From Aneurinibacillus terranovensis DSM 18919 (GTDB taxonomy: Bacteria > Bacillota > Bacilli > Aneurinibacillales > Aneurinibacillaceae): a stretch of DNA of 40,527 nt. Each line of letters begins with the position of its first letter. Within the stretch, counting starts at the first letter, position 1. The translations under genes and the position numbers were made by a program. The DNA lies in the NCBI RefSeq assembly GCF_000430625.1, contig NZ_AUMJ01000053.1, positions 1 through 40,527 of the forward strand, read 5' to 3'. This document shows positions 9,526 to 40,527 of this stretch, piece by piece. A model generated the notes under the pieces. The model was not told the DNA's origin. It ran no database searches and saw only the letters and a list, made by a program, of their open reading frames with translations.

Positions 9526-9956
9526 TGGTTATTTCCTCCTTGGAAAATGGAATTGTTTTGCAGCATTTGATATTGTAGCGCAGGAATGTGTCCGGAATAT
9601 GTCAAGCCCGATATCTGGTATTGGATGCCTCAATTCTCCTTCAACTCTCCTCATTTCAACCGGTTTTATTGATCGAAGCATTCCAATCCCTGTCTATCAC
9701 AATCCCGCATTCGCATTGAAATACTCGTTCGGAAAGAGACAACTTCTCCGAACAAACATATCTTTTGCCTAGTCAGATAGGGTGTCATCCATTGCTTTTC
9801 TACGAATTTGACGACCAAAACAAGATGATAATACAATGAGAATATCGAATGATTATTATTGTCTAAATTCGTTGATATAACAGCCTTTCATTTATCTAAG
9901 ACTGATTATATCATTGCACAAAAAGGGAAACAACTTTAGGCTAAGAAACTGGAGAC
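9526..9956. other. Intergenic stretch with no recognisable gene
   Basis: About 430 bases between the argF terminator and the secreted-protein gene. A plus-strand open frame crosses part of it (to about 9772), but it starts inside the secreted-protein gene, has no ribosome site and shows no recognisable domain. The region should contain the promoter for the secreted-protein gene, but I could not pick one with confidence. Confidence 0.4.
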
Positions 9957-28636: not shown

Positions 28637-28723
28637 CCTGGCTAACGCCAGGCCGCGGGCGGCAGGCGATCTGCCTCGTTGCACTTGCATAGATAAGAAA
28701 ATTATCCTTCCTCTTATCTACGC
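28637..28723 (-). promoter_or_regulatory. Structured eutB-eutC intercistronic region with possible ANTAR-type hexaloop
   Basis: Minus strand, in order: a 12-bp stem (28687-28723) over the eutB stop codon; TGC-AACGAG-GCA (28672-28683), a hexaloop with A at position 1 and G at position 4 as in ANTAR targets, and matching the GCAANGRRGC core reported for EutV sites; a competing GGCAG-N5-CTGCC hairpin (28661-28675); and CCTGGC-GTTA-GCCAGG (28637-28652) followed by TCTTCTT. A matching first ANTAR hairpin is not obvious, and the hexaloop stem is only 3 bp, so the regulatory reading is tentative. Confidence 0.4.
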
Positions 28724-30079
28724 AAAAATAGAGAGATCCCCTGCGCGCTCCGTCAATCTGCCGTTTTCCATGATCCCCATTTTCTCAAGCCATTTCTCAA
28801 ATTCCCGAAGCGGTCGATATCCCAGCATTTCTCGCAGGCTGGCATCATCGTGGTAACTCGTATCCTGATAGTTCAGCATGACATCATCGCCGCCCGGAAC
28901 GCCCATATAGAAATTGGCTCCCGCCAGGGCGGTGAGAATACCGGCAATCTCCTGGTCATTCTGATCCGCATGCATATGATTCGTATACGTTGGCGCGATG
29001 CCCATCGGCAGCTGGTGCATTTTTCCCATAAAGAGATCTTCCAGATCCGCCCGAATCATCTGGCGGCCGTCGAAGAGGGTTTCCGGCCCGATAAACCCGG
29101 AGACATTGTTTACCATAAACGGTTTCCAGTGTCTCGCGAAGCCGTAGGTACGCGCTTCGAGCGTCTGCATATCGACCCCTCTGTGGGCGTTTAGCGACAC
29201 CTCAGAACCTTGCCCGGTTTCAAAATACATTACATTCGGCCCGGCTGACGTTCCATACCGCTTCATCATTTCCAACCCCTGATCCAGCAATTGTTTAGAA
29301 ACACCGAAGGCTTCATTCCCTTTCTGTGTCCCCGCCAGACTTTGAAACATGAGAGCGATAGGCGCTCCCTTATCCAGCGCTTCCATCTGGGTGGTGATAT
29401 GGGCAAGCACACAATTTTGCGTGGGAATTTCCCATCGTCTGATAAATTCATCACTCATGTGCAGAAGCCGGGAAACTGATTCAACGGTATCGATATTGGG
29501 GTTAATGCCGATCACAGCGTCCCCCGATCCATAGGAAAGCCCTTCTTTAATCGAAAACAAAATGCCTTCGGGGTCATCGGTCGGGTGGTTAGGCTGGCAG
29601 CGGAACGCCAGCCGGCCCGGCTCCCCAATCCATGTATTGCAGTGTGCCTTGTATCTCATTTTTTGGGAAGCCATGACCAGATCGATGGTAGACATTAGTT
29701 TGGCCACCGCTGAAATCATTTCGCTTGTTAATCCCCTTGCAAGGCGTGAGAGTTCGTGCGAGCCGGTTTCGTGTAAAAGAATGTAATTTCTGAGCTCGCC
29801 AACAGGCCAATCTTTTATTTCCTTATAAATAGAGAGATTTACGTCATCATAGATGACCCGGGTTACCTCATCATCCTCATAAGGAATAACCGGATTCTCG
29901 TAGATATCCGCCAGCCGGATTTCGCTCAGCACAACCTTGGCAGCCATCCGTTCAAGCGAAGAATCGGCAGCGATTTTAGCCAGTTTATCCCCGGTTTTTT
30001 CTTCGCTTGCCTTGGCCAGAACCTCAGCAAGAGAAGAAAATTGGTAATATTTCTTTCTCATCACGCAGGACAGCCTCAT
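28718..30079 (-). CDS. eutB: Ethanolamine ammonia-lyase, large subunit, second (divergent) copy
   Basis: Catalytic TIM-barrel subunit of the B12-dependent lyase, 453 residues. The start at 30079 (MRLSCVMRKKYYQFSS) aligns exactly with the other copy in this window (MNLKTKLLDKVYQFTD); an upstream ATG at 30097 lacks this support. Residues matching the known substrate contacts of E. coli EutB remain: the RCQPN segment (Arg and Gln), GINPN (Asn), YFETGQGS (Glu) and HADQND (Asp). It differs from the first copy through much of residues 110-160 (QKMRYKAHCNTWIGEPG against SKIEIISMCNTAIGQQG) and near the active-site rim (MGVPGGDD against IAAPMGDD). It sits after the shell genes, with its own eutC and a permease, resembling compartment-free eut modules. 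Confidence 0.95.
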   Translation of the reverse strand: MRLSCVMRKKYYQFSSLAEVLAKASEEKTGDKLAKIAADSSLERMAAKVVLSEIRLADIYENPVIPYEDDEVTRVIYDDVNLSIYKEIKDWPVGELRNYILLHETGSHELSRLARGLTSEMISAVAKLMSTIDLVMASQKMRYKAHCNTWIGEPGRLAFRCQPNHPTDDPEGILFSIKEGLSYGSGDAVIGINPNIDTVESVSRLLHMSDEFIRRWEIPTQNCVLAHITTQMEALDKGAPIALMFQSLAGTQKGNEAFGVSKQLLDQGLEMMKRYGTSAGPNVMYFETGQGSEVSLNAHRGVDMQTLEARTYGFARHWKPFMVNNVSGFIGPETLFDGRQMIRADLEDLFMGKMHQLPMGIAPTYTNHMHADQNDQEIAGILTALAGANFYMGVPGGDDVMLNYQDTSYHDDASLREMLGYRPLREFEKWLEKMGIMENGRLTERAGDLSIFA

Positions 30080-30100
30080 CGCATTTTCTGCCTCCATTCC

Positions 30101-35437: not shown

Positions 35438-36802
35438 TTAACGTACAAAAATGGTAGGATCCCCGGCACGCGCGCTTAATTTTCCCGCCTCCATAATACC
35501 CATCTTCTCTAACCACTCCTGAAAGCGGGGAGCCGGCCGGCGGTTCATCGTCTGCCGCAGTGTTGCCACATCATGATAGCTCATCGATTGGTAATTCAGC
35601 ATACAATCGTCCCCCATCGGAGCGGCAATGATAAAGTTCACTCCCGCTGCCGTGAGCAGAACCCCGAGGTTTTCCATGTCGTTTTGGTCTGCCCGGATAT
35701 GGTTCGTGTAGCAGATGTCAACCCCCATCGAAATTCCGTGCATTTTCCCCATAAAGTGGTCTTCCAGTCCCGCCCGGATCACCTGTTTGCTATCGTACAA
35801 ATATTCCGGCCCGATAAATCCGACAACCGTATTGAGGATATACGGATCATAACGGCGTGCGAACCCGTAGTTCCGCGATTCCAGGGTCATCTGGTCAATG
35901 CCGTGATGCGCTTCGGCGGACAGCTCCGAACCCTGTCCTGTTTCAAAATAAAGCCGCTGCGGCCCGCTGCTCGTTCCGAGCGCACGAATCATATCTCTCG
36001 CTTCATCCAGCATAGCCGCCGTGATGCCAAACGATCGGTTGGCCGCTTCCGTACCGGCAATACTCTGGAAAATCATATCGGCGGGAGCCCCCTGGGCAAT
36101 GGCTTTCATCTGGGTTGTGACATGCGCCAGCACGCAATTCTGGGTAGGCACTTCCCATTTCTCGATAAAATCATGCGTGGCGTGCAGCAGGCGCTTGACA
36201 CTTTCAACGGAATCGTCGACCGGATTAATCCCGATCACGGCATCACCGATTCCATAAGCGAGACCTTCCTGTAAGGAAGCGAGCATTCCTTCTACACTAT
36301 CCGTAGGATGGTTAGGTTGAAGCCGGGAAGCGAGGGATCCCTGCTGGCCGATCGCCGTATTGCACATGGAAATAATCTCAATTTTGCTTGCACAGTGTAT
36401 CAAATCCAGATTGGACATCAGTTTTGCCACGGCGGCAATCATTTCACTCGTTAAACCTCTGCTAATTCGCTTCATCTGTTCTCCCGTTGTTTTATCATCG
36501 AGAATCTTCTCTCTTAACTCGGCAACCGTCCAATTCGCCATTTCTTTAAAAATCGCTTCGTTGACCTGTTCCTCGATAATCCGTGACACTTCGTCTTCTT
36601 CCGGAGGCAAAAGCGGGTGGGCTCGTATGTCCCCCAGGGTCAAATCAGCCAGTACCCGCTTGGCAGCAATCCGTTCCTGCACCGTCCCGGCTGCGATCCC
36701 TGCCAAACGGTCGCCGGACTTCTCTTCATTTGCTTTAGCAAATACTTCTTTTATATCAGTAAACTGATAGACTTTATCCAGCAGTTTCGTTTTAAGGTTC
36801 AT
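35438..36802 (-). CDS. eutB: Ethanolamine ammonia-lyase, large subunit, first copy
   Basis: A 454-residue catalytic subunit. It starts MNLKTKLLDKVYQFTDIKEV, close to E. coli EutB (MKLKTTLFGNVYQFKD), and keeps the substrate residues in RLQPNHP, GINPVDDS, YFETGQGSELS and HIRADQND. The stretch GFIGPEYLYDSKQVIRAG and DHFMGKMHGISMG is nearly as in proteobacterial compartment-type EutB, unlike the second copy. The start overlaps the eutA stop (ATGA), so reactivase and lyase are coupled. It is first of the lyase genes in the operon and most likely the copy housed in the shell. Confidence 0.96.
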   Translation of the reverse strand: MNLKTKLLDKVYQFTDIKEVFAKANEEKSGDRLAGIAAGTVQERIAAKRVLADLTLGDIRAHPLLPPEEDEVSRIIEEQVNEAIFKEMANWTVAELREKILDDKTTGEQMKRISRGLTSEMIAAVAKLMSNLDLIHCASKIEIISMCNTAIGQQGSLASRLQPNHPTDSVEGMLASLQEGLAYGIGDAVIGINPVDDSVESVKRLLHATHDFIEKWEVPTQNCVLAHVTTQMKAIAQGAPADMIFQSIAGTEAANRSFGITAAMLDEARDMIRALGTSSGPQRLYFETGQGSELSAEAHHGIDQMTLESRNYGFARRYDPYILNTVVGFIGPEYLYDSKQVIRAGLEDHFMGKMHGISMGVDICYTNHIRADQNDMENLGVLLTAAGVNFIIAAPMGDDCMLNYQSMSYHDVATLRQTMNRRPAPRFQEWLEKMGIMEAGKLSARAGDPTIFVR

Positions 36803-38295
36803 TGCAGGGCCATCCTTTCTGAAGAATGAAAAGTAAGCGTTTTGACAACAACGGGAACAACTTCCGTCTGCAGCATATGGCCGATATCCACATAATCACC
36901 CTGTTCCACCTGAACCTGGTCAATACAGAGGATGCGGTGTCCGGGATTCATCGACTGCAGCGTTTGCCCCAACACTTTGGCCATATCACTCGAAACGATA
37001 ATTACGATAGGCTCCTTATGATTCCGCGGCTGACGATAGGATGAAAGCAGCCAGTCTGCCAGTTCCCGCACCTCGCGGAACCTGAGGACAGGAAGCCCGG
37101 TTAGATAGAGTGCAAAGCTACGCCCTTCTCCCGCCGGATCGTAAATCCGGATCGCTTTTTCGATAGCAGTATGTATCTTTTGCCTGCCGTCGGCCAGGCT
37201 CCCGTTCATGTCCACGTGATACACCGGCAGGTTTTTAATCGGCAGGCAGGAACGATCCACGTGAATCGTTGCCCCGCTAATTTCCGTTGTCTGCATACCT
37301 GCGCCAAGCACGGTTGCCCTGACCGTTTCCAGCGGCTTGATCCATTCCCACCTGGTAAGTTCGGCCGACTCTGCAAGCACTCTGGCAAGTATGAGCCCAA
37401 TATCTGCATAGCTGTCGTTTAGCAGAGACTCCCTGCCGTTTTGTTCCAATCCGTACAGACATTCGCTCACGCCGCCTGAGAACATAATTGCCTCCACAGG
37501 GGCCGTCCAGTCCGGCGGATGCCCGAGCAGGAGGATTTCATCCCCCGGCTCGACCCTCCCGTCGAGGATATGGGAGAGGGTGCGGACCATGGCCTGCACA
37601 ATCTCTTCAACCACTCCCCGGGGAGCAGGCTCTCCCTCGATCAGCCGCAGCCCTAATCTGTGCAGCAAATCCCGCACTGGAGAAGAGATTCGTTTCACGA
37701 CCTTTTCACCGTGGGCGACCTGACCCGCGTGAAATTCAATCAGCCTTCCGCCGATATGGAGGGTGCACGTACCGAGTAAATGACCGGACCGATAGACAGC
37801 GATGTTCGCGGTTCCACCACCGATATCAATATTGGCGACTGTTCTGCCGGTTTGCCTCGAATACTCATAGGCGCCGGAACCTTTCGCCGCGATAATTCCT
37901 TCCAGATCCGGGCCCGCCGTGGCCACGAGAAATTCCCCGGCTCGTTCGGACAATTGGTGAACCATTTCCTCGGCGTTCTGCTTTGTTGCAGTTTCACCTG
38001 TAATAATTACCGCGCCGGTAGCGATATCCCGGGGATGAATACCCGCCCTCCGGTATTCCTGTTCTACCAGCTCCAGCACGGCCCCCATGTCAATCCGACT
38101 GTCCGATTCAAGGGGCGTGCGGTAAATCGGGCTTTTATATAAAACCTGTTTATCGATAATCTCAATCCGCGGCACATGGCTTAGCCCTGCTGTATTCGCG
38201 AGTGAAAGGCGGCTGATAATCAGCTTGGTTGTACTCGTTCCGATATCGATACCCGCACTGATCAATTCTTCCTGTTCACGGCGCAGCGGTTTCAT
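36799..38295 (-). CDS. eutA: Ethanolamine ammonia-lyase reactivating factor
   Basis: An ATP-dependent factor that swaps damaged cobalamin for fresh adenosylcobalamin in the lyase. The 498-residue protein belongs to the ASKHA (actin/Hsp70-like) superfamily: phosphate-1 motif ISAGIDIGTSTTKLIISR near residues 11-28, phosphate-2 motif ANIDIGGGTANIAVYRSG near 170-187, and the later VEAIMFSGGVSECLYG. GGGGGGG stands five bases before the ATG. It is preceded by a terminator with possible ANTAR hairpins, so it is the first gene under EutV antitermination control, and overlaps eutB by 4 bases. Confidence 0.95.
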   Translation of the reverse strand: MKPLRREQEELISAGIDIGTSTTKLIISRLSLANTAGLSHVPRIEIIDKQVLYKSPIYRTPLESDSRIDMGAVLELVEQEYRRAGIHPRDIATGAVIITGETATKQNAEEMVHQLSERAGEFLVATAGPDLEGIIAAKGSGAYEYSRQTGRTVANIDIGGGTANIAVYRSGHLLGTCTLHIGGRLIEFHAGQVAHGEKVVKRISSPVRDLLHRLGLRLIEGEPAPRGVVEEIVQAMVRTLSHILDGRVEPGDEILLLGHPPDWTAPVEAIMFSGGVSECLYGLEQNGRESLLNDSYADIGLILARVLAESAELTRWEWIKPLETVRATVLGAGMQTTEISGATIHVDRSCLPIKNLPVYHVDMNGSLADGRQKIHTAIEKAIRIYDPAGEGRSFALYLTGLPVLRFREVRELADWLLSSYRQPRNHKEPIVIIVSSDMAKVLGQTLQSMNPGHRILCIDQVQVEQGDYVDIGHMLQTEVVPVVVKTLTFHSSERMALQ

Positions 38296-38323
38296 TTCAA
38301 CCCCCCCTTACGTTAAGGAAAAT

Positions 38324-38396
38324 TTGGCTAGCACCAAGCCAAAAAGGCGCCGTATGCGATCGTTGCATTATACGAATCGCACAGGCGCCTTTGCCC
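38324..38396 (-). promoter_or_regulatory. eutA leader: intrinsic terminator overlapped by candidate ANTAR (EutV) dual hairpins
   Basis: Minus strand. Terminator 1: AAAGGCGCC-TGTGCGA pairs with TCGCATA-(C)-GGCGCCTTT (38343-38392), then T residues. Terminator 2: TTGGCT-N7-AGCCAA (38324-38342), then ATTTT. Overlapping these are two short hairpins with ANTAR-like loops: P1 GGGC-AAAGGC-GCCT (38383-38396), a hexaloop with A1 and G4, and P2 ATGC-AACGATC-GCAT (38354-38368), A1 and G4 but a 7-base loop. P1 uses the terminator's 5' arm, so the two states exclude each other, as expected for EutV antitermination. The terminator is clear; the ANTAR reading is inference. Confidence 0.6.
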
Positions 38397-38418
38397 TCTT
38401 TATTCTTTTTTGCGTCAT

Positions 38419-39015
38419 TTACGACGTTAACGAATCCAGTTTCAAACTGCGGTGGGCAATCACATGATCCGCCGCCTCATCCATGGAAATCCGGTTGTTC
38501 ATGCAGTATGTTCTCAGCTTTCTGTAGGCTTCTTCCTCGCCCAGATGGTACTCAGCCATCAAAACTCCCTTGGCCTTTTCTATCTTTTTTCGTATCTCAA
38601 GCTGGTGTTCCAGCTTTTTTATGCTGTCCAGCAAACAGTTGATTCGCATTGCCTGCCCGAGGGCGATTTCCACAGAGGGAATAAGGTCCCTTTCCGTTAT
38701 CGGTTTGACAAGGTATCCAATGTTCTGCGCTTCCCGCGCTTCCTGAACAAGTTCTTGTTCGCTGTATGCTGTCAACAACAGCACCGGTATTCCATACGTT
38801 TTTTGGATAATGCGGCTTGCCTTTATGCCGTTCATTTTCGGCATTTTTACATCCATCACGATTAAATCAGGCCGATGAATCGCCGCCTGTTCGATGGCCA
38901 TGTCACCGTTGTTAGCCTCAGCCACCACGTCGTAGCCGGCTTCCACCAGCATTTCTTTCACATCCATCCGTAAAATTGACTCATCATCAACCACCATAAT
39001 GCGGCCTTTACTCAT
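38419..39015 (-). CDS. eutV: Response regulator with ANTAR RNA-binding domain
   Basis: A 198-residue antiterminator. The receiver domain has VVDDES at the N-terminus, the phospho-acceptor in LIVMDVKMPKMNG near residue 53, and a conserved Lys in YLVKPITERD. The C-terminal ANTAR domain (about 130-190) carries KKIEKAKGVLMAEYHLGEEE and AYRKLRTYCMNNRISMDEAA, the three-helix bundle that binds paired hexaloop hairpins in RNA. The ATG at 39015 has AGGAG eight bases upstream, preferred over the GTG at 39024. It is coupled to eutW, whose stop overlaps its ribosome site. Phosphorylated EutV should prevent termination before eutA. Confidence 0.94.
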   Translation of the reverse strand: MSKGRIMVVDDESILRMDVKEMLVEAGYDVVAEANNGDMAIEQAAIHRPDLIVMDVKMPKMNGIKASRIIQKTYGIPVLLLTAYSEQELVQEAREAQNIGYLVKPITERDLIPSVEIALGQAMRINCLLDSIKKLEHQLEIRKKIEKAKGVLMAEYHLGEEEAYRKLRTYCMNNRISMDEAADHVIAHRSLKLDSLTS

Positions 39016-39020
39016 CCTCA

Positions 39021-40457
39021 TCACTCCTGGGCAAGGGGAAAAGTAACCTTTGATTTTGTGCCCCCTCCATCGTTTTGACCAATCTCAAATCTTCCGGAAA
39101 GATCGTAATGGGTTAGGTTTCGTACGATTTCCAGACCCAGCTGATCCGTATTCGGCCGCTCCTGAAGACCAACGCCGTCATCCTGTACAGATAAATAAAG
39201 CCTGTTCTGTTCATCCATATGAAACATGACGACGATGCTCCCTTCTGTCCGCCCGGTGAAGCCGTGTTTGATGCTGTTCTGAATCAATTCAGTGAGAATC
39301 AGAGCGAGCGAAACTGCCTGTTTAGAGGAAAGCTCAATATCCTCAATGTCAACTTCAATATCGACCCGGCAATCTTCACCCTGCATATTATAAATCAACA
39401 TTTTTGCAATTTTTTCAATCACCTGGTTCATGTTGACCTTCTCAATCCCGCTGTAAGAAAGGACTTCATGAATCGTGGCGATACTGTTAATCCGGTTCAG
39501 GCTTTCCTGGTACAGTGATTTTGCTTCGTCCGGTACCCCGCGTCTTAGCTGGAGCCGCAATAAGCTTGACACCGTCTGCAAATTGTTTTTGACACGGTGG
39601 TGAATTTCCTGAATCACCGCCGATTTTACCATCAACTGGCGCTCTTTTTCACGCAAATCCGTGATATCCCGAATATACAACAGAATGCGCCGCGCTTCGT
39701 GATTCTGCTGCAAACAAATGCCGCGCAGGATATAAACCATATCCTTAAAATGAACCTCCCGCTGCATGACACTATTGTGGGAGTAATCGCTGGATATGAC
39801 GAATGGAATCACTTCGTTGACTCTTTTGTTGATGTAGTTTTCCCGGGTAAGCCCGCTGTACGCCTCAATCATCCCGATTGCAAAATTATTGGCATACAGA
39901 ATGGTTCCATCTTCCCGCAGCAGGACAAGCGCCTCTTCAATCACATCCGGAATGGCCTGTTCCTTCGCAATTAAGTCCCAGAATGTACGGCTGAATTCTT
40001 CCGTTGTTTCCGATAAGATAGCCAGTTCATTCTCGTTTTTCACCTGAAGAGAAATATCCTGCTCCAAAATCAACATCCCAATTGACTCTCCGCCGCTGTT
40101 TTTAATAGGCAGCACATTTTGCTTCACATGCTGTCCTTCCTGGGTAACGGCACGATTCATCATAGCCGGTCTGCCTGTCCGGTAGGCGCGAAAAACGGCC
40201 GGTTCGTAAGGCGCAAATATTTTCTTCCCCACATAGCTCTTCTCGTAAAGGGAACGAGTGGTCGCGGGAATGGCTTCCGCAACAACGATAGCGGTGTCCC
40301 CGATTCCGTCATTCACCGGACAATCGATAAATACGTTGGCCTGGGAAAGATCCGCGATTGTCTGGATCATTTCGCTGTTTTTGATTAGACAATCAATGTC
40401 CTGTTCCGTAAGCACGGTATACTCCATACAGAGGCGGTAAATTTGAGAATCCACCAT
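39021..40457 (-). CDS. eutW: Ethanolamine-responsive sensor histidine kinase
   Basis: A 478-residue soluble sensor kinase. The N-terminal 150 or so residues form a GAF/PdtaS-like sensor domain (FIDCPVNDGIGDTAIVVAEA, VLPIKNSGGESIGMLILEQD), followed by a PAS domain (EEALVLLREDGTILYANNFA) and a HisKA_2-type dimerisation helix with the phospho-acceptor His in IQEIHHRVKNNLQTVSSLLR near residue 286. The HATPase_c domain has LILTELIQNSIKHGF and VQDDGVGL. No membrane segment is seen. GGAG lies about ten bases before the ATG. Only 18 bases separate its start codon from an IS200/IS605-type right end, so its native promoter may be displaced. Confidence 0.93.
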   Translation of the reverse strand: MVDSQIYRLCMEYTVLTEQDIDCLIKNSEMIQTIADLSQANVFIDCPVNDGIGDTAIVVAEAIPATTRSLYEKSYVGKKIFAPYEPAVFRAYRTGRPAMMNRAVTQEGQHVKQNVLPIKNSGGESIGMLILEQDISLQVKNENELAILSETTEEFSRTFWDLIAKEQAIPDVIEEALVLLREDGTILYANNFAIGMIEAYSGLTRENYINKRVNEVIPFVISSDYSHNSVMQREVHFKDMVYILRGICLQQNHEARRILLYIRDITDLREKERQLMVKSAVIQEIHHRVKNNLQTVSSLLRLQLRRGVPDEAKSLYQESLNRINSIATIHEVLSYSGIEKVNMNQVIEKIAKMLIYNMQGEDCRVDIEVDIEDIELSSKQAVSLALILTELIQNSIKHGFTGRTEGSIVVMFHMDEQNRLYLSVQDDGVGLQERPNTDQLGLEIVRNLTHYDLSGRFEIGQNDGGGTKSKVTFPLAQE

Positions 40458-40475
40458 CGTTGAAAGACTCCTTTA

Positions 40476-40527
40476 TTGAACCTCTCATGGCTAAAGCCAC
40501 GAGATTCTTGGGTAGTCCGCTCTACTG
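40476..40527 (-). mobile_element. Right end of an IS200/IS605-family (TnpB) element, including 3' part of its omega-RNA
   Basis: Read on the minus strand the edge holds GTAGAGCGGACTACCC, then AAGAATC, then an 8-bp hairpin CTCGTGGC-TTTA-GCCATGAG (40484-40503), then AGGTTCAA ending at 40476. This order (GTAGAGCGG..., AAGAATC, imperfect hairpin with TTTA loop, ending TTCAA) is the layout I know for right ends of IS605/IS1341-type elements whose tnpB is followed by an omega-RNA. The rest of the element, including any tnpB, lies beyond the window. It would be transcribed toward eutW. Assignment is from pattern memory, not a search. Confidence 0.7.

What the first reader, a model, noticed from the sequence alone, without database searches (positions are those of the whole stretch)
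40458..40527. A TnpB-type transposon end abuts eutW, and its omega-RNA guide would be the eutW ribosome binding site
The minus strand ends an IS200/IS605-like right end at TTCAA (40476). TnpB omega-RNAs are known to extend past the right end and use the flanking bases as guide. Here the first 18 flanking bases (40475 down to 40458) are exactly the eutW leader with its GGAG site, and base 19 is the A of the eutW ATG. The element points toward eutW, so tnpB/omega-RNA transcription could both drive eutWV and carry a guide matching the eut regulator's translation start. A nuclease-dead TnpB here would resemble the TnpB-derived RNA-guided repressors described elsewhere; this last step is speculation.
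Basis: partly seen in the sequence, partly recalled or inferred. Interest (0 to 1): 0.78.

Follow-up and report, generated by a model that had tools for sequence, protein, structure and literature searches.

The report
Stranded transposon in ethanolamine regulator leader
A common kind of bacterial jumping gene has landed just before the ethanolamine-sensing gene eutW, so its guide RNA would match eutW simply because such guides copy whatever DNA lies next door; it is an ordinary, probably immobile copy rather than a designed repressor.

Summary
Window 40476-40527 (minus strand) is the right end of an IS200/IS605-type TnpB transposon: 14 of 14 right ends found in this genome finish GGTTCAA with unrelated flanks. 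The next 18 bases are the eutW leader. The window stops at a contig end. The other half of the locus is, by synteny, the end of contig C37: eutS-like gene, eutP, promoter, antiterminator-like leader, then TTTAT, a left end and the first 92 codons of tnpB. Joining TTTAT to the right flank gives an empty site that aligns with the uninterrupted leader of eight relatives. "Guide equals ribosome site" holds by construction, because TnpB guides are the flanking bases. At home the flank follows TTCAA, not the inferred TAM TTTAT, and no TTTAT-flanked match within 3 mismatches was found in the assembly. In this copy tnpB follows directly on a left end lacking the 3' hairpin arm, so tnpA is gone and the copy is probably immobile. 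Scans show no promoter in the element parts seen; tnpB and eutWV probably depend on the eut promoter. The repressor idea has no support. The middle of tnpB is unassembled.

The parts
40476..40527 (-). Right end (RE) of an IS200/IS605-type TnpB element, ending TTCAA; cut off by the contig end
   Evidence: 98-100% identical in 12 places of the genome, 14 counting two weaker ones; nothing shared by all after TTCAA
40478..40507 (-). Subterminal RE hairpin, the expected 3' part of the omega-RNA scaffold
   Evidence: MFE fold; scaffold role inferred from ISDra2 (PMC8612924, passages)
40458..40475 (-). Right flank = predicted omega-RNA guide = eutW leader with GGAG ribosome-binding site
   Evidence: Sequence; AAAGG(A/G)GT is kept in the leaders of eight relatives. 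Guide role inferred, no RNA data
39021..40457 (-). eutW, sensor histidine kinase, 478 codons, intact start codon
   Evidence: GAF_PdtaS, HisKA_2, HATPase_c; 62-71% identity to the eight best relatives
38419..39024 (-). eutV, response regulator with ANTAR RNA-binding domain
   Evidence: Response_reg E 4e-27, ANTAR E 6e-18
38339..38395 (-). Leader of eutA: GGC-AAAGGC-GCC mini-hairpin overlapping a terminator-like stem, the same motif as in the leader on C37
   Evidence: Sequence read by eye and fold of 38296-38418; not called by the terminator scan, which called another hairpin at 38343-38323
36799..38295 (-). eutA, reactivating factor
   Evidence: PF06277 E 8e-164

Best explanation
An IS200/IS605-type TnpB element inserted 3' of TTTAT in the T-tract of the leader terminator that precedes eutW, 18 bases before the eutW start codon. 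SHOWN: right end and flank in the window; eutP, promoter-like site, leader, left end and tnpB start at the end of contig C37; uninterrupted leaders in relatives that fit the joined flanks. SHOWN: in C37 the left end lacks the 3' arm of its hairpin and tnpB follows without a tnpA. INFERRED: this arose by deletion of tnpA. INFERRED: the two contig ends are the two sides of one element of about 1.3 kb. INFERRED: TnpB with its omega-RNA would, as proposed for ISDra2, cut the empty donor site (TTTAT plus the eutW leader) left after excision and so restore the element; the match to the eutW ribosome site is a by-product of where it landed. INFERRED: with a broken left end the element can no longer be excised, so this function is idle here. 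INFERRED: tnpB, the omega-RNA and eutWV are now transcribed from the original eut promoter, past the EutV-type terminator; eutW translation signals are intact but the transcript is longer.
For: RE multi-copy with a sharp boundary. TnpB C-terminus inside the same RE at ten other ends; Cys finger and WDRDVNAS seen in the two copies translated. C37 end: eutS-like BMC protein, eutP (69% identical to G008 eutP), leader, TTTAT-GAATTAGCCGAG left end, HTH_OrfB_IS605. TTTAT precedes the left end in 15 of 15 own-genome copies printed (two further own rows, the reverse arms of the C51 and C55 hairpins, left out). The join aligns with 8 of 8 relatives aligned, without duplication; the spacer between T-tract and AAAGG varies in length, longest in G047 and G014. 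Only one eutW match at E up to 1e-40 and one strong eutP match. Seven of seven sister left ends folded have a stem of 8 or more pairs (MFE -15.5 to -34.9); C37 does not (-7.7). Two promoter-like sites in the C37 stretch, 10 and 9 of 12 matches, both upstream of the leader; the TTTACA and TAT columns are mostly kept in relatives. Guide origin, TAM and donor-joint model from ISDra2 (PMC8612924, passages).
Against: No contig spans the element: the two halves are joined by synteny and by the empty site, not by sequence. Most of this copy's tnpB (from codon 93 to the last 52 bases of the RE) is unassembled and could be truncated. The left-end defect rests on one assembled junction; the tnpA remnant (QIRQYIQNQKVR) was recognised by eye and is not among the Y1_Tnp matches. 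The scans are weak: promoter-like sites are not above the shuffles (2 found, mean 1.4), the leader terminator itself was not called, and a terminator-like site was called inside the tnpB start (L106 1713-1728), which would count against read-through into eutW. The TAM is inferred from insertion sites; one of nine left ends of relatives (L097) lacks TTTAT. The second hairpin of the classic ANTAR pair was not identified, so EutV control of the leader is inferred.
Confidence: 0.9

Rival explanations
1. Domesticated TnpB: the element lost tnpA and its left end, kept tnpB and the guide RNA, and now acts as an RNA-guided regulator of eutWV, binding the eutW leader or elsewhere.
For: tnpB start and RE kept while tnpA and the left-end hairpin are gone. 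Nuclease-dead TnpB relatives that repress genes and sit beside non-transposon genes are known (PMC13418256, passages); that such loci also lack tnpA is recalled. It sits inside the operon of a regulator.
Against: At home the guide match is preceded by TTCAA rather than TTTAT; the four other matches within 3 mismatches lack TTTAT, and the total is not above the control (5 against 7). C-terminal catalytic motifs are kept in sister copies. None of the eight relatives aligned has the insertion.
Confidence: 0.04
2. The element carries an outward promoter that now drives eutWV in place of the displaced eut promoter.
For: Insertion sequences often do this (general statement in PMC9208149, passages); the element lies directly upstream in the same orientation.
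Against: No sigma-70-like site called in the last 360 bases of the near-identical copy C26 nor in this copy's left end and tnpB start; the stretch that in sister copies leads from the left end to tnpA is absent here. The unseen middle of tnpB could still hold one, and other promoter types are not covered.
Confidence: 0.1
3. The hairpin is an unrelated leader structure of eutW, not a transposon end.
For: It is a strong hairpin close to a start codon.
Against: The same end occurs in 13 other places with unrelated flanks, ten of them with a TnpB match inside, and the eight relatives' eutW leaders aligned lack it.
Confidence: 0.005

Closest known systems
ISDra2 of Deinococcus radiodurans (IS200/IS605 family; TnpB with right-end RNA, TAM TTGAT)
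   Same: Partly palindromic ends, insertion 3' of a T-rich pentamer without duplication, right-end RNA with flank as guide (PMC8612924, passages)
   Different: Target TTTAT instead of TTGAT; this copy lacks tnpA and has a broken left-end hairpin
IS605-type elements of Sulfolobus islandicus (SisTnpB)
   Same: Left-end motif TTTAA and right end finishing TTCAC, very close to TTTAT and TTCAA here (PMC11043419, passages)
   Different: Archaeal; TnpB not compared here; no link with eut genes known to me
EutV/ANTAR-controlled eut leaders of Enterococcus faecalis
   Same: Mini-hairpin with a six-base loop having A at 1 and G at 4, overlapping an intrinsic terminator before eut genes (PMC3369931, passages)
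   Different: There four terminators precede eutP, eutG, eutS and eutA; here one precedes eutW and has the element after it; only one mini-hairpin was recognised
TldR, TnpB-like nuclease-dead repressors
   Same: A tnpB-type gene with a guide, here without a transposase gene beside it (TldR: PMC13418256, passages)
   Different: No trans target with a TAM found; nuclease death not shown; RE still present and guide still just the flank

Membership tests
IS200/IS605 transposons with tnpB | Subterminal right-end hairpin and sharp conserved right boundary | tested here: met
IS200/IS605 transposons with tnpB | Insertion 3' of a fixed short target without target duplication | tested here: met
   TTTAT in 15 of 15 own left ends printed and 8 of 9 of relatives there (the 16 used were picked with TTTAT in the pattern); clean join
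IS200/IS605 transposons with tnpB | Left-end hairpin | tested here: not met
   This copy lacks the 3' arm; seven of seven sister copies folded have the stem. It is best called a defective derivative
IS200/IS605 transposons with tnpB | Y1 transposase tnpA (in autonomous members; may be absent) | tested here: not met
   No Y1_Tnp match on C37, only a short tnpA-like tail read by eye; Y1_Tnp matches lie beside this family's left end on C51, C55, C12, C68 and C57
IS200/IS605 transposons with tnpB | TnpB with N-terminal HTH and C-terminal zinc-finger/RuvC domain | tested here: inconclusive
   HTH_OrfB_IS605 on C37 and TNB domain in a sister copy; the rest of this copy's tnpB is unassembled
TnpB omega-RNA system | RNA from the RE with about 16 flanking bases as guide | not testable with these tools
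   Needs small-RNA sequencing; sequence anatomy fits
TldR nuclease-dead repressor | Loss of RuvC catalytic residues | not testable with these tools
   This copy's RuvC region lies in the assembly gap; the fragment on C22 keeps IEDL and DRDVNA (which residues are catalytic is recalled)
TldR nuclease-dead repressor | Guide matches a target elsewhere next to a TAM | tested here: not met
   One exact match (the flank itself) and four with 3 mismatches, none preceded by TTTAT; unassembled repeats not covered
ANTAR-responsive leader (eutW) | Two mini-hairpins with A1/G4 hexaloops before a terminator | tested here: inconclusive
   One such hairpin TAGGC-AAAGGC-GCCTA found overlapping the terminator; the second not identified; no Rfam match there

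The most novel reading that the evidence does not exclude
A TnpB element stranded by loss of tnpA and of its left-end hairpin inside the EutV-controlled leader of eutVW: tnpB and a guide RNA carrying the eutW ribosome site would be made together with the regulator when ethanolamine is sensed, and the TnpB complex, tolerating TTCAA as a weak motif, would bind its own flank and damp eutWV transcription: an early step toward an RNA-guided autoregulator.
Probability: 0.03. Interest if true: 0.75.

Novelty: new member of a known kind. Interest (0 to 1): 0.22.

Why it matters
It shows how a striking "guide equals ribosome-binding site" reading follows from the ordinary anatomy of TnpB elements. It also gives a natural case in which such an element separates an antiterminator-type leader from the regulator gene it serves, with uninterrupted sites in relatives. 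If the preference for terminator T-tracts (5 of 16 sites) holds up, it would explain how these elements can land between terminators and genes with little harm.

Tried and rejected
Unrelated leader hairpin: rejected by copy number and empty sites. C22 as an intact left half of the element: rejected, its open frame is a ParA-like frame (by eye) running into the C-terminal part of TnpB. Longer TnpB frames on C39 and C50: 44% and 39% identical to one relative's TnpB used as query (L082), where the pieces of this family that I could assign (C22, C13, C37 and the ten right-end pieces) reach 57-73%, so not used for this copy. Searching a relative's 141-base spacer as DNA gave a 24-base hit on C37 (E 5e-4) and 15 weaker chance-like hits; the protein search for eutP settled it. 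Rfam, on ten loci, found no known RNA family at the right end or the eutW leader. Structure prediction was not used: this copy's tnpB is incomplete. Of 13 relatives with an eutW match, eight were aligned at the leader, two more only read (G053, G035) and three not examined there (G023, G041, G059). Terminator preference: T-run of at least 6 before the target in 5 of 16 left-end sites against 27 of 524 TTTAT sites in 115,671 bases of own-genome DNA (Fisher 0.0015); strong hairpin alone 4 of 16 against 53 of 524 (p 0.077, not significant); both 4 of 16 against 18 of 524 (p 0.003) (background length). The cut-offs were chosen after seeing the sites, and survival of insertions between genes alone could give such a bias, so this is only a lead. 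My first statement that eutW was the only right end near a start codon was checked and corrected to 2 of 14. No paper of the held library holds both TnpB and eutW (one search); a search for IS200/IS605 and terminators or insertion preference listed 8 papers, of which passages of two were read, without finding a terminator preference for this family.

Full report
What was claimed.

The letters and coordinates are as stated. The window is the whole of contig C35 of a 4.25 Mb, 98-contig genome and ends where that contig ends. The terminal 52 bases occur in 12 places of the genome at 98-100% identity (window included) and in weaker, shorter form in two more. In 14 of 14 the shared sequence ends GGTTCAA and nothing after it is common to all. 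At ten of the 13 other ends, on nine contigs, the DNA runs a little further inward and gives a TnpB C-terminal match (PF07282 above its cut-off); two of these were translated and read WDRDVNAS after a Cys finger. So the feature is a multi-copy TnpB element end, not a leader structure.

The missing half of the locus was found. Relatives with eutW (13 of 60 other genomes searched) show what should lie upstream. In the eight best relatives a leader with the motif GGCAAAGGCGCC (GGCAATGGCGCC in one) and a terminator precedes AAAGG and eutW; in most of them a eutP-like frame lies before it, in G047 and G014 the gene before was not recognised (by eye). Searching the own genome for eutP gave one strong match, 69% identical, near the end of contig C37. 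That contig end reads: BMC-domain protein (eutS by position), eutP, TTTACA-17-TATTAT, the same leader motif and a terminator-like stem with T-tract, then TTTATGAATTAGCCGAGAACACTCGTGAC and a tnpB start with its HTH_OrfB_IS605 domain, running off the contig after 92 codons. The sequence from GAATTAGCC on is the left end (LE) of the family: 15 of 15 own-genome left ends printed have TTTAT before it, as do 8 of 9 left ends of relatives there (L097 does not; four rows that are reverse arms or a right end were left out of these counts).

Empty site. Joining C37 up to TTTAT with the right flank of the window gives GAGCTTTTTTTTAT-TAAAGGAGTCTTTCAACGATG, which aligns through the leader with eight relatives, for example GAGCCTTTTTTATTAACAAAGGGGTCTTTCACACGTG, with no duplicated bases. 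The spacer between T-tract and AAAGG varies among relatives and is longest in G047 and G014, so a change of a few bases at the join cannot be excluded. This is the classic IS200/IS605 insertion, 3' of a short T-rich target. Here the target lies in the T-tract of the terminator that precedes eutW.

State of this copy. Seven of seven sister left ends folded have a stem of 8 or more pairs. In C37 the stem's second arm is missing and a tail that reads like the end of a Y1 transposase (QIRQYIQNQKVR, by likeness to other TnpA ends; no Y1_Tnp match on C37) follows directly, then tnpB. The junction region (query bases 53-128) matched only C37, so a false join through a repeat is unlikely, though only one assembled junction shows it. 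Without the left-end hairpin, which the transposase recognises in this family (recalled; a reference title in PMC2806898 says so), the element is probably no longer mobile. Most of this copy's tnpB, about 270 codons by comparison with a 363-codon relative, is not in the assembly, so its integrity is unknown.

What the guide means. In ISDra2 the right-end RNA carries about 16 bases of flanking DNA as guide, cleavage needs the TAM that equals the insertion target, and the proposed role is cutting the empty donor joint (PMC8612924, passages). Applied here, the guide TAAAGGAGTCTTTCAACG with motif TTTAT is aimed at the empty eutW site, wherever that still exists. The occupied site has TTCAA before the match. 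A scan of the own assembly with up to three mismatches found the flank itself and four matches with three mismatches, not more than the reversed control pattern gave (5 against 7), and none preceded by TTTAT. A start codon within 20 bases heading a same-strand frame of at least 70 codons occurs at 2 of 14 right ends, eutW and C77; at C77 the ATG lies 4 bases after the end and the frame may be the inside of a broken gene. The coincidence at eutW needs no further cause.

Effect on eutWV. The insertion leaves the ribosome site and start codon intact but puts the promoter and the terminator on the far side of the element. No promoter-like site was called in the final 360 bases of the near-identical copy C26 or in the left end and tnpB start of this copy; two were called upstream of the leader, of which TTTACA-17-TATTAT sits where relatives have similar hexamers. 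These scans are weak: the number found is within that of shuffled sequence. The right-end hairpin was not called as a terminator, but one terminator-like site was called inside the tnpB start (L106 1713-1728). The simplest reading is one transcript: leader, tnpB with its RNA, eutW, eutV. The leader hairpin TAGGC-AAAGGC-GCCTA has a six-base loop with A at position 1 and G at 4, as EutV sites do (PMC3369931, passages), and overlaps the terminator; by eye, similar hairpins precede the eutS-like gene and eutA. I did not recognise the second hairpin of the pair, and Rfam had no match, so control by EutV is inferred.

Verdict. A well-anchored insertion of a known kind of element, probably dead as a transposon, in an interesting place. 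The regulatory story is not excluded in its weakest form but has no support. Interest is low to moderate; the most useful leads are the possible taste of this family for terminator T-tracts and the possibility that a tnpB now lies under eut control.

Noticed in passing
window 9668-9754 (-), with about 9770-9860 (-): A scrap of TnpB C-terminus (PF07282) shortly after a stretch that reads like the start of a Y1 transposase similar to the one on C32: a deletion scar of a second IS200/IS605 family (the tnpA likeness was read by eye).
   Followed up: partly
window 35438-36802 (-) and 28718-30097 (-): Two EutB large subunits of ethanolamine ammonia lyase in one locus (Pfam EutB E 7e-211 and 1e-199).
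   Followed up: no
L056 1589-2938 (G000:C22): A ParA-like frame (by eye) continues open into the C-terminal part of TnpB (450 codons to the contig end), an apparent in-frame fusion made by a truncated element.
   Followed up: no
L118 (G000:C14 about 80354-80417): A palindrome of about 62 bases made of two left ends head to head, TTTAT on both sides: it looks like a miniature left-end-only derivative.
   Followed up: no
left ends on C37, C12, C57, C20, C34: Five of 16 insertion sites lie in T-runs of six or more, against 27 of 524 TTTAT sites in general; three of the five also follow a strong hairpin. Cut-offs were set after seeing the sites.
   Followed up: partly
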